DNA of 45,873 nt from Candidatus Gastranaerophilales bacterium (lineage in GTDB: Bacteria > Cyanobacteriota > Vampirovibrionia > Gastranaerophilales > Gastranaerophilaceae), in contig CALUYB010000013.1 in assembly GCA_944324905.1 (NCBI GenBank), positions 1 to 45,873 on the forward strand, in the 5' to 3' direction. Positions within the stretch are counted from its first letter, which is position 1; each line of letters opens with the position of its first letter. The position numbers and the translations under genes are program-made. Shown here piece after piece: positions 30,516 through 33,289 of the stretch. The notes under the pieces were generated by a model. It was not told the origin of the DNA. It did no database searches and saw only the letters and a program-made list of their open reading frames with translations.

Positions 30516-32639
30516 ATGGAAAAAGTAGGCGCAAATTTTGATGTATTAAATAACAACAGCTTAAATACTCAAGCTGCTCAAAATTCTGATACTACAGATG
30601 AGCAGTTAATATTTGAGCAAGATGATTCCAATTCTAAAAATTTGGACGATTTGGAATTGCAATTTGAGGCTGCTCAAGACGAGCAAGGCTTTTTGGGGAA
30701 ACTTTGGAATGGTTTTAAAAATCTTACCGGGCTAGGATTAAGCTCTAATGATGTTCAAGATAAGCTTGAACAATACGAAAACGGCGAAATTACCTATGAT
30801 GAAGCTGCAAGTGTAATTGAAGAATATAAAACAAAGCAAGATGGCGCAGTGGATTTGATTGCAAATACTGCAACAGGTCTTGCTGTCGCAGGCGTTAGCG
30901 TTGCGACAGGTGGTACGGGCGCTATTTTAATAGGTCTTGGAGTCGGCGCAGGAGCTAAAGCAGGCTTAAAAACCGTAGACAGGGCAACAAATGACATCGA
31001 AGGCGATGCTCTTGATTCTAAAGAAATTCTAAAAGATGGTATAACAGGTGCTGTTGACGGTGTTACAAGTGCCCTAACTGCCGGTATGGTATCAGTTCCA
31101 ACTGCAGGCGCAACAGTTATGAATACTGCAAAACAAGGACTAGTGCAAGGGGCAAAAGCAGGAGCAATAACAGGTGCTGCTACCGGAGCAACTCAATACA
31201 CTACAGATTGCGCATTTGATGATGACAAGGAATTTGCATTGAGCGGTCTTTTGGCATCGACTGCTCAAAATACTGTTACTGGCGGTATTTTTGGTGGTGT
31301 TACAGGCGGTATTGGCGGTGCAATTTCGCAAAATAATTTTAATAACACTGTAACCATCACTCATAACAATGAACTTCAAAAAGAAATTGATAACGCTTTT
31401 CAAGCAAAAAGATATCTTGATAACTTTAATGAAAAAAATAAAGAAATTGCAATAACTTCTGCTCAAGAGTATTCAAGCATATTAAATAAGCTGGAAGGGC
31501 ACAGTGCAAGTGCGCAAGATTTAACGGCAAAATTTGATTCACAAATAGATGAAGCCAGTGAGCATATTTATAGTGCGTTTAAGGGTAATAAAACAATTGA
31601 TTCCATAAGTGCAAGACCAAAGGGGCAAAATTCAGTTTTTTCAAAACTTGCAAAAAAAGAAATTAATGGCAGTGCAAATTTAACTACAATGGATAATTGC
31701 TATGATGCTATTGGCGATGCATTGGGGCTAAGAATTCAGATGAATAGCCTTGATAGTGACACTTCATCAAAAATTGTAGAAAAAATGTTAAAGAAAAATA
31801 ATATCAACGCGACTTTTGATGATTTTGTAAAATATGTGAGCGGCGAAGAATTACAAAATAAAGAAATCGAAAATGCTCTTTCAAATGTTAGTAAGGATAT
31901 TATCGACTCTCTGAAACAAAAACAATCTCAAGGGGTTGTAGACCAACTGGTAAAGGGAATTAAAAAAGGTAAGGTTAATATAACTGAAATTAATAACTAT
32001 GGCTCAGAATTGACATCTTATTTTACTGATGCACAGGTTCAACAAATTGCTGATGCTTACAACTATGCCATTTCAAAGGGTATATTTGAAAACGACAGTG
32101 CTTTTAAAATTCTAAACGATAATCCTGTTTTAGATATAAATGATACTGATGTTACAGATGGAATAGGCAATATTACTTCAAAGTCCAATAGTGATACAAA
32201 AATAAAGGTAAAACAAAAAACAAAAGGTGCTCAAAAAGAATCAGGCTATGCAAGTACGCAAGCAAATACAAAGCACAAGCTAAAAGATGGCACGATAGCA
32301 AACGGTGAATTGCAAATCAGAGGTACAAAAGTAAATGAATTTGCTGAAGTTGAGCATATTCCATATGATATAAGATCTGGAAAAATATACAAGGATGACC
32401 CTAAATATGCAGATATATATGATTTGATTACAAAAATGGAAGATGTTGACTATGATAGTTACAATAAATATCTCAGCGATGTTTATAAAACTTTGAGATT
32501 GCAAGAATTGGGGCTTTTGCCTGATAGTGCGATAATGCCTAATATTAAAAATTATATGAGCAATTCAAATTTAAATGATGAAGCATTGAAAATGATTGAT
32601 ATGAACGGATTAATCGAGATTGCAAAAAAAGGTCATTAA
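30516..32639 (+). CDS. RelA/SpoT-domain protein with Gly/Ala-rich hydrophobic N-terminal region (707 aa)
   Basis: Residues 1-100 are acidic and low-complexity. Residues about 110-280 are Gly/Ala-rich hydrophobic helices (TATGLAVAGVSVATGGTGAI, then IFGGVTGGIGGAIS), like the membrane-inserting parts of secreted toxins. Residues about 365-620 read as a split (p)ppGpp synthetase fold. RPKGQNSVFSKLAKKE matches the RPK/S-x-Y-x-K motif, GDALGLRI the metal aspartate motif, GYAST the GYxS motif (its following His is Gln) and GELQIRG the metal glutamate motif. AEVEHIPYD closes it. The gap between the Asp and Tyr motifs is about 175 residues, much longer than usual. A secreted or polymorphic toxin-like role is inferred, not shown. 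Confidence 0.65.
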   Translation: MEKVGANFDVLNNNSLNTQAAQNSDTTDEQLIFEQDDSNSKNLDDLELQFEAAQDEQGFLGKLWNGFKNLTGLGLSSNDVQDKLEQYENGEITYDEAASVIEEYKTKQDGAVDLIANTATGLAVAGVSVATGGTGAILIGLGVGAGAKAGLKTVDRATNDIEGDALDSKEILKDGITGAVDGVTSALTAGMVSVPTAGATVMNTAKQGLVQGAKAGAITGAATGATQYTTDCAFDDDKEFALSGLLASTAQNTVTGGIFGGVTGGIGGAISQNNFNNTVTITHNNELQKEIDNAFQAKRYLDNFNEKNKEIAITSAQEYSSILNKLEGHSASAQDLTAKFDSQIDEASEHIYSAFKGNKTIDSISARPKGQNSVFSKLAKKEINGSANLTTMDNCYDAIGDALGLRIQMNSLDSDTSSKIVEKMLKKNNINATFDDFVKYVSGEELQNKEIENALSNVSKDIIDSLKQKQSQGVVDQLVKGIKKGKVNITEINNYGSELTSYFTDAQVQQIADAYNYAISKGIFENDSAFKILNDNPVLDINDTDVTDGIGNITSKSNSDTKIKVKQKTKGAQKESGYASTQANTKHKLKDGTIANGELQIRGTKVNEFAEVEHIPYDIRSGKIYKDDPKYADIYDLITKMEDVDYDSYNKYLSDVYKTLRLQELGLLPDSAIMPNIKNYMSNSNLNDEALKMIDMNGLIEIAKKGH

Positions 32640-32665: not shown

Positions 32666-33103
32666 ATGAAACTTACAAATGATTTTAACAATTACAATAC
32701 AAATTTTAACGGCGCAAATAATGACAGTAACAATACTGCCGAAAATCAAGATAAAATGGAAAATCTTATGAATAGACTTTGCGAAGTCTTATCTGAAAGA
32801 ACTGAAAACGAAGTCCCTGAAAATGGAAAATTTGCTCCAATTTCTGTATCTTTTAGCATTCCTCAAACAAATAATAAAGCTAAAGCTATTGTTGAATATG
32901 ACGCACTTGCGCCAAAAAATTTGAGAAGACTCTCTATTGCTTCTCATCATGTAAACAGTGACAGACTTATTTCAACTTATGTTTTAAGGGGAACAAAACA
33001 GGAAATAATTGATTATCTTAATAATCCTCAAAATCAAAAAAAGCTGGTTAAGCTTGCAAATGAACTTTCAGATAGTGTTGATGAATATTATGACAATTTG
33101 TAA
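32666..33103 (+). CDS. Hypothetical protein (145 aa) next to the RelA/SpoT-domain gene
   Basis: I do not recognise a family. Residues 1-40 are Asn-rich and disordered (NDFNNYNTNFNGANNDSN). Residues about 55-145 look like a small alpha/beta domain (FAPISVSFSIPQTN, AKAIVEYDALAPKNLRRL, helical end VKLANELSDSVDEYYDNL). It begins 26 nt after the RelA/SpoT-domain gene with a good GAGGGG ribosome site, and a TATAAT lies just before that site. A role as partner or immunity protein is possible from position only. Confidence 0.6.
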   Translation: MKLTNDFNNYNTNFNGANNDSNNTAENQDKMENLMNRLCEVLSERTENEVPENGKFAPISVSFSIPQTNNKAKAIVEYDALAPKNLRRLSIASHHVNSDRLISTYVLRGTKQEIIDYLNNPQNQKKLVKLANELSDSVDEYYDNL

Positions 33104-33112
33104 AAAATAAAC

Positions 33113-33185
33113 TGGGCCTGGTGGGACTCGAACCCACGACCAAAAGATTAAGAGTCTCCTGCGCTACCAACTGCGCTACAAGCCC
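33113..33185 (-). tRNA. tRNA-Lys (CUU anticodon)
   Basis: The minus strand folds into a full cloverleaf: acceptor GGGCTTG with CAGGCCC, D-loop AGTTGGTAGC, anticodon loop CTCTTAA (CUU), T-arm GGGTTCGAGTCC and discriminator A. CCA is not encoded. A TATACT lies 9-10 nt upstream. Confidence 0.95.
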
Positions 33186-33289
33186 ATAAGTTAAGTATAG
33201 CACTAAAACATTTTTTTTGAAACATTTATTTTACTTGTGATTTGCCTTTCTGTGTATTACAATTGCCATATTACACAGGGAGTTAATAA

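What the first reader, a model, noticed from the sequence alone, without database searches (positions are those of the whole stretch)
30516..32639. RelA/SpoT-type synthetase domain fused to a Gly/Ala-rich membrane-insertion-like region
Seen: motifs RPK..S.F..K, GDALGLRI, GYAST and GELQIRG in the right order within residues 365-620, with an insert of about 175 residues between the metal Asp and the GYxS motif and Gln in place of the usual His. The N-terminal 110-280 is a glycine-zipper-like hydrophobic region. Known: toxic small alarmone synthetases and secreted RelA-fold effectors make (p)ppGpp or (p)ppApp. Inference: this could be a delivered or self-acting nucleotide pyrophosphokinase toxin, or a membrane-bound alarmone synthetase of a new architecture.
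Basis: partly seen in the sequence, partly recalled or inferred. Interest (0 to 1): 0.75.

Follow-up and report, generated by a model that had tools for sequence, protein, structure and literature searches.

The report
Alarmone-synthetase effector with downstream partner gene
A gut bacterium of the order Gastranaerophilales carries a probable toxin gene whose end part is a real RelA-type nucleotide pyrophosphokinase, whose front part is a swappable membrane-like module also found on other effector enzymes, and which is always followed by a small partner gene, probably its antidote.

Summary
Residues 340-707 of the 707-aa protein are a RelA/SpoT synthetase domain. As a domain it scores 27.1 bits against PF04607 (cut-off 27), and 22 of 32 relatives match. 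A family profile finds six (p)ppGpp synthetases as its top PDB hits. An AlphaFold2 model (pLDDT 89) aligns best to SAS1/SAS2 (Z 11). The ATP-site, metal and acceptor-site motifs are conserved in 32 relatives, with Gln (not His) in the GYxSxQ loop.

New facts:
(1) A ~145-aa gene follows directly in every relative with intact flanks. It tracks the catalytic domain, not the N-terminus.
(2) The Gly-rich N-terminal module is shared by proteins with other C-terminal enzymes (ADP-ribosyltransferase exoenzyme, PRTase-CE, ABC1 kinase).
(3) The domain occurs on proteins of 420 to over 3,000 aa, and only in Gastranaerophilales among the cyanobacterial genomes sampled.
(4) Within the genus only two sampled genomes carry the pair at this tRNA-Lys site.

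Best reading: the catalytic end of a polymorphic effector/toxin with a cognate immunity protein. RelA-type polymorphic and exported toxins are already described (PMC3482391, PMC12691689). The N-module, partner family, insert and host lineage appear new. Activity, substrate, target and delivery route are untested.

The parts
30516..32639 (+). Effector gene, 707 aa: N-terminal module plus C-terminal RelA/SpoT synthetase domain
   Evidence: full-length relatives in L003-L012
30516..30635 (+). Residues 1-40, acidic polar N-terminus, fast evolving (52% identity, omega 0.54 against G166)
30636..31355 (+). Residues 41-280, shared N-module with Gly/Ala-rich hydrophobic part (111-280)
31356..31532 (+). 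Residues 281-339, linker
31533..32636 (+). Residues 340-707, RelA/SpoT synthetase domain
31614..31646 (+). ATP-site motif R367-K369-S373-K377
   Evidence: invariant in 32 relatives; spacing as K66-S70-K74-R77 of FaRel2 (PMC11782079)
31713..31736 (+). GDALGLRI with metal-site Asp D401
   Evidence: D401 invariant
31980..32003 (+). ITEINNYG block inside the insert, conserved only in this family
32241..32261 (+). SGYASTQ acceptor loop, Tyr578 and Gln582 in place of His
32304..32324 (+). GELQIRG, catalytic Glu598
32352..32369 (+). EHIPYD, family-specific extension of the SAS 'N-x5-EH' motif
32666..33103 (+). Partner gene, 145 aa, 26 bp behind the effector with GAGGGG before its ATG; probable immunity protein/antitoxin
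33112..33186 (-). tRNA-Lys(CTT) bordering the variable site

Best explanation
The gene encodes a polymorphic effector/toxin of Gastranaerophilales. The shared N-terminal module (residues ~40-280) serves trafficking or membrane placement. The C-terminal domain (340-707) is a RelA/SpoT-type pyrophosphokinase that moves pyrophosphate from ATP to the 3'-OH of a nucleotide, most likely GTP/GDP, and so stops growth of the cell in which it is active. The 145-aa protein encoded directly downstream binds the catalytic domain and keeps the producer safe. Shown here: family and fold, conserved active-site residues, purifying selection, modular N-terminus, obligate partner gene. Inferred: catalysis, substrate, toxicity, neutralisation by the partner, delivery to another cell.
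For: PF04607 match at cut-off and in 22/32 relatives. A bridging relative, L064, scores 30.3 bits and aligns at E 1e-24. PDB profile hits are all SAS enzymes. The AlphaFold2 model has pLDDT 89, pTM 0.88, with Foldseek best 6fgj 6.5e-4 and VIA Z 11.3 to SAS1, 9.1 CapRel, 7.5 Tas1. Catalytic motifs are invariant. dN/dS is 0.11 over the domain. The partner lies behind all 32 relatives and behind seven giant or divergent ones plus L064. The partner tree tracks the catalytic domain, not the N-module (partial r 0.55 against 0.11). N-module proteins without the domain lack the partner but carry ADPrib_exo_Tox, PRTase-CE or ABC1 domains. Within the genus only G000 and G166 have the pair at this tRNA-Lys site. 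RelA/SpoT-like polymorphic toxins with immunity genes are known (PMC3482391, PMC12691689, PMC12226406).
Against: No activity, toxicity or binding data. No known immunity or antitoxin fold was recognised in the partner. No secretion signal or dedicated machine was linked to the N-module. The order also has a small relative without a partner next to the same 2-oxoacid oxidoreductase genes in two genomes (L119, L065), so not every member of the superfamily need be a toxin. The tree correlation is partly shared ancestry.
Confidence: 0.6

Rival explanations
1. A self-acting toxin-antitoxin or phage-defence pair (toxSAS type, like FaRel2/ATfaRel2 or CapRel): the enzyme stays in the producer, held at the membrane by the N-module, and is released from the 145-aa antitoxin by a trigger.
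For: Two-gene operon with a tight junction; obligate partner; domain resembles CapRel (Z 9.1) and less FaRel2 (Z 4.8); patchy presence at a tRNA site.
Against: The N-module is shared with proteins carrying an ADP-ribosyltransferase exoenzyme domain and other enzymes without this partner, and the domain sits on proteins of up to 3,309 aa or more, which fits effectors better than toxin-antitoxin toxins. No PADLOC hit of note.
Confidence: 0.2
2. A host-directed or prey-directed effector exported by a type III-like apparatus, with the 145-aa protein as its chaperone.
For: Own genome has a complete flagellar export set plus a second divergent FlhA/FliP/FliQ/FliR/FliF set that misses flagellar cut-offs for FlhA and FliF; sister N-module proteins carry host-effector-like domains; no VirB4.
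Against: The partner follows the catalytic domain and not the N-terminus, while type III chaperones usually bind near the N-terminus (general knowledge); its median pI is 7.8, not acidic. The second FlhA set may be only a second flagellum-type system. No link between apparatus and effector was tested.
Confidence: 0.12
3. A housekeeping membrane-associated alarmone synthetase controlled by the small partner.
For: Most high-quality genomes of the order (203/306) hold at least one match to the domain profile, and a small relative lies next to the same 2-oxoacid oxidoreductase genes in G000 and G039 (loci L119 and L065). Own genome has a separate long RelA/SpoT.
Against: This locus is not syntenic within its genus; other genomes carry other genes at the site. 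N-terminal architectures are many and unrelated.
Confidence: 0.06
4. A catalytically dead RelA-like domain used as a binding module.
For: His of the GYxSxH loop is Gln in nearly all members; long insert.
Against: All metal and phosphate residues are invariant in 32 divergent relatives. The loop position is Asn in proven MuF pppApp synthetases (GxN, PMC12226406).
Confidence: 0.05

Closest known systems
Small alarmone synthetases SAS1/RelQ (YjbM) and SAS2/RelP (YwaC)
   Same: Closest solved folds (Z ~11, ~165 aligned residues) and closest PDB sequences; same R-x-K-x3-S-x3-K, D, GY-x-S and E-x-Q-I-R motifs, N-x5-EH
   Different: Fused to a large N-module; 176 residues between metal Asp and GYxS; Gln for His; obligate partner gene; no sign of housekeeping synteny at this locus
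Exported alarmone synthetases, Tas1/Apk1, MuF-Apk2, AaEAS (PMC12691689, PMC12226406, PMC3482391)
   Same: RelA-type domain at the C-terminus of a delivered polymorphic protein, with an immunity gene downstream in the T6SS, T7SS and MuF cases
   Different: None of the published N-domains (signal peptide, WXG/LXG, XopAD, MuF, DUF4157, Rhs/PAAR) was identified here; fold similarity to Tas1 is lower (Z 7.5); acceptor loop SxQ, not GxN, and QIR, not YH, so guanosine-like by those signatures
toxSAS toxin-antitoxin enzymes FaRel2 and CapRel (PMC11782079, PMC9712102)
   Same: Two-gene toxin plus small neutraliser in FaRel2; identical spacing of ATP-site K/S/K/basic residues; CapRel fold Z 9.1
   Different: Partner has no recognised antitoxin fold; large modular N-terminus; no tRNA-binding evidence
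XopAD-type plant-pathogen type III effectors
   Same: RelA/SpoT-like domains within very large effector proteins (PMC3482391)
   Different: Known only from the papers; no sequence comparison was made; XopAD carries SKWP repeats and usually two RelA domains

Membership tests
RelA/SpoT synthetase (PF04607) domain family | Profile match at or above the curated cut-off | tested here: met
   27.1 bits against 27 for the isolated domain, 22/32 relatives match, best 1.9e-9; L064 30.3 bits. Full-length scan alone did not list it.
RelA/SpoT synthetase (PF04607) domain family | Synthetase fold | tested here: met
   AlphaFold2 pLDDT 89; top Foldseek and VIA rows are SAS enzymes, Z 11.3, rmsd 3.5, 168 aligned.
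RelA/SpoT synthetase (PF04607) domain family | Catalytic Arg/Lys/Ser/Lys, Asp, Tyr, Glu-x-Gln | tested here: met
   Invariant in 32 relatives; by alignment, no coordinate superposition of side chains was made.
RelA/SpoT synthetase (PF04607) domain family | His in the GYxSxH acceptor loop | tested here: not met
   Gln in the query and at least 90% of relatives. The position also varies in proven enzymes (GxN, PMC12226406), so it is common but not defining; the membership claim rests on the profile and fold.
RelA/SpoT synthetase (PF04607) domain family | Pyrophosphokinase activity | not testable with these tools
   Needs enzyme assay.
Polymorphic toxin system | Shared N-terminal module joined to different C-terminal enzyme domains | tested here: met
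   N-module with PF03496, PRTase-CE and ABC1 above cut-off, other tails without a family.
Polymorphic toxin system | Immunity gene directly downstream, specific to the toxin domain | tested here: inconclusive
   Gene is there and tracks the domain; neutralisation not testable here.
Polymorphic toxin system | Known trafficking domain or secretion route | tested here: inconclusive
   No Pfam, NCBIfam or PHROG family for residues 41-280; a second type III-like export set exists but no link was shown.
Exported alarmone synthetase (EAS) | Recognised export signal or domain | tested here: inconclusive
   No WXG/LXG, MuF, DUF4157 or PAAR match in the Pfam scan; signal peptide not run with a dedicated tool, N-terminus is acidic and polar.
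toxSAS toxin-antitoxin | Partner is a known antitoxin fold (pZFD, Panacea, Tis1-like) | tested here: inconclusive
   No sequence or fold match; best VIA row PURA Z 6.9, within the noise range.

The most novel reading that the evidence does not exclude
Gastranaerophilales, gut relatives of cyanobacteria, run an undescribed polymorphic effector repertoire built on this Gly-rich N-module (RelA synthetase, ADP-ribosyltransferase, PRTase-CE, kinase), sent out by a second type III-like export apparatus. The RelA member attacks competitors or host cells through alarmones, and its partner is a new class of synthetase inhibitor.
Probability: 0.15. Interest if true: 0.85.

Novelty: new variant of a known kind. 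Interest (0 to 1): 0.6.

Why it matters
It extends RelA-type toxin/effector enzymes to a common, uncultured gut lineage with a two-domain, two-gene design not covered by the N-domains of the published exported-synthetase survey. It offers a marker, the N-module, for finding the lineage's other effectors. It also offers a small, widely conserved partner that may inhibit (p)ppGpp-type synthetases by a new fold. Both are directly testable in laboratory E. coli.

Tried and rejected
The full-length Pfam scan missed the domain; scanning the domain alone and its relatives resolved this. Phage and plasmid origin: no tblastn match in phage or plasmid records, none in viral contigs; the viral structure library gave only weak rows (best a phage RelA/SpoT protein, E 1.4e-3). 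Defence system: no useful PADLOC hit. Partner family: no Pfam, NCBIfam, PHROG or PDB match of note, and fold rows (PURA, Whirly, LptE) are in the noise range. A common N-terminal F-x-G motif as an export signal: not enriched in N-termini of 139 sampled proteins, dropped. A C-terminal YY motif in the partner as an analogue of the ATfaRel2 YXXY plug: present in 20/32 but absent in divergent members, kept only as a weak idea. Horizontal transfer from dS: mixed values, so only presence/absence is used. Literature on Gastranaerophilales with alarmones: no paper found.

Full report
What is there. The window is contig C13 of a 1.66 Mb genome. ORF 30516-32639 encodes 707 aa. A second ORF, 32666-33103, 145 aa, starts 26 bp behind it with GAGGGG before the ATG. 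A tRNA-Lys lies directly after, on the other strand.

The RelA reading is right. A full-length Pfam scan and a PDB phmmer search gave nothing. A protein search of the order's genomes found many relatives; 32 C-terminal domains align with invariant R, K, S, K, D, G-Y, E-x-Q-x-R and E-H positions. The domain alone reaches the PF04607 cut-off, and 22 of 32 relatives match. The intermediate L064 is above the cut-off and aligns to the query at E 1e-24. A profile of the family against PDB returns six GTP pyrophosphokinase sequences first, E 9e-6 to 2e-4. The AlphaFold2 model built from family sequences only has pLDDT 89 and pTM 0.88. Foldseek and VIA-align put SAS1, SAS2, a Streptomyces exported synthetase, CapRel and Tas1 on top. 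Z 7.5 for Tas1 alone would be in the noise range; Z about 11 for SAS1/SAS2 stands above it.

Active site. K369, S373, K377, K380 have the spacing of K66, S70, K74, R77 that hold ATP in FaRel2, and D401 corresponds to its catalytic D90 (PMC11782079). Tyr578 corresponds to the base-coordinating Tyr128 there. The acceptor loop is GYxSxQ. In the MuF pppApp synthetases this site is GxN against SxH in guanosine enzymes, and the next motif is YH against IR (PMC12226406). The query has SxQ and IR, so the signatures lean to guanosine, but converting those motifs did not switch specificity in that paper, so this is a weak inference. The 176-residue spacing contains helices and a family-specific ITE(I/L)NNYG strand, function unknown.

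The partner. A homologue follows the effector gene in all 32 relatives (L026 truncated and weaker) and behind L108, L109, L113-L117 and L064. It is predicted as one long helix, four strands and two helices (pLDDT 86), without a convincing PDB match. Pairwise distances of partner and catalytic domain correlate (r 0.76, 0 of 5,000 permutations reach it; shared ancestry contributes). In 22 loci the partial correlation is 0.55 with the catalytic domain and 0.11 with the N-module. This is what an immunity protein or antitoxin should show, and not what a chaperone of the N-terminus should show.

The N-terminal module. Residues 41-280 recur as stand-alone ~290-aa proteins and at the front of others in these genomes; none of the sampled loci without the RelA domain has the partner. 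Their tails include ADPrib_exo_Tox (49.1 bits against a cut-off of 23.4), PRTase-CE (35.3 against 27) and an ABC1 kinase (54.4 against 22.9); a DSP-phosphatase match is below cut-off. In reverse, the RelA domain sits on other N-termini, from ~420 aa to open frames of more than 3,000 aa, sometimes internal. Two-way shuffling with a constant partner is the pattern of polymorphic effectors.

Distribution and locus. The profile hits 245 of 383 genomes of the order. In a 292-genome sample of the phylum all 87 hits are in the window's own family. Within the genus the glycosyltransferase gene to the right of the tRNA-Lys is conserved at 87-98%, but only G000 and G166 carry effector and partner beside the tRNA. 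Others carry leuS, a phage-like block with a partial tRNA copy, or unrelated genes, and G340 and G390 carry ~54% identical effectors elsewhere. The catalytic domain is under purifying selection (omega 0.11); residues 1-40 evolve fast (omega 0.54).

Delivery. The genome lacks a VirB4 match. It has a full flagellar export set on C9 that passes flagellar models. It also has a second FlhA (C4, below the FlhA and SctV cut-offs) with FliF-like and other basal genes, and a second FliP/FliQ/FliR set with a FliN/SctQ-like protein on C1 (FliQ and the second FliR named by eye). Whether this exports the effectors is unknown.

Comparison with the literature. RelA/SpoT-like polymorphic toxins in T7SS, MuF and XopAD contexts were predicted in 2012 (PMC3482391), and exported alarmone synthetases with several secretion domains are now shown (PMC12691689). 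This find is of that kind. Its N-module, partner family, insert and lineage were not among the domains those papers list. Their supplementary sequence sets were not searched, so absence there is not proven.

Uncertainty. Fold and family: about 0.95. Catalytic competence: about 0.8. Toxin-immunity pair: about 0.65. Delivered to another cell rather than self-acting: about 0.5. No experiment was run.

Noticed in passing
G000 C9 (L169 9336-14402), C4 (L171 12351-18981), C1 (L174 1017-5006): Two sets of flagellar/type III export genes in one 1.66 Mb genome; the second FlhA and FliF fall below both flagellar and injectisome cut-offs.
   Followed up: partly
L173 11907-13352 (G000 C1): A 481-aa protein that carries only the cytoplasmic part of FlhA (profile positions 318-678) without the membrane part.
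   Followed up: no
L133 1697-4372: 891-aa protein with the same N-module and an ADP-ribosyltransferase exoenzyme domain (PF03496, 5.5e-13), with no small same-strand gene directly behind it.
   Followed up: partly
L119 2155-3336 and L065 2490-3554: Small RelA-like proteins (about 350-390 aa) in two genera, next to the same 2-oxoacid oxidoreductase genes and without the partner; L065 scores above the PF04607 cut-off and both keep His in the loop.
   Followed up: partly
L072 6063-7178 (G000 C5): Protein with annexin-like G-x-GTDE repeats directly behind another N-module protein; a similar neighbour seems present in L122-L125. Judged by eye only.
   Followed up: no
L108 and L118: Giant proteins that hold both the RelA-like domain and an HD domain further on (PF01966 25.8 bits against 22 in L118; by eye in L108), possibly synthetase and hydrolase in one chain.
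   Followed up: no
L156 5146-9670 (G243 C17): Phage-like genes (terminase-like, amidase-like, by eye) and a 57-base partial tRNA-Lys copy at the site that holds the effector in G000.
   Followed up: no
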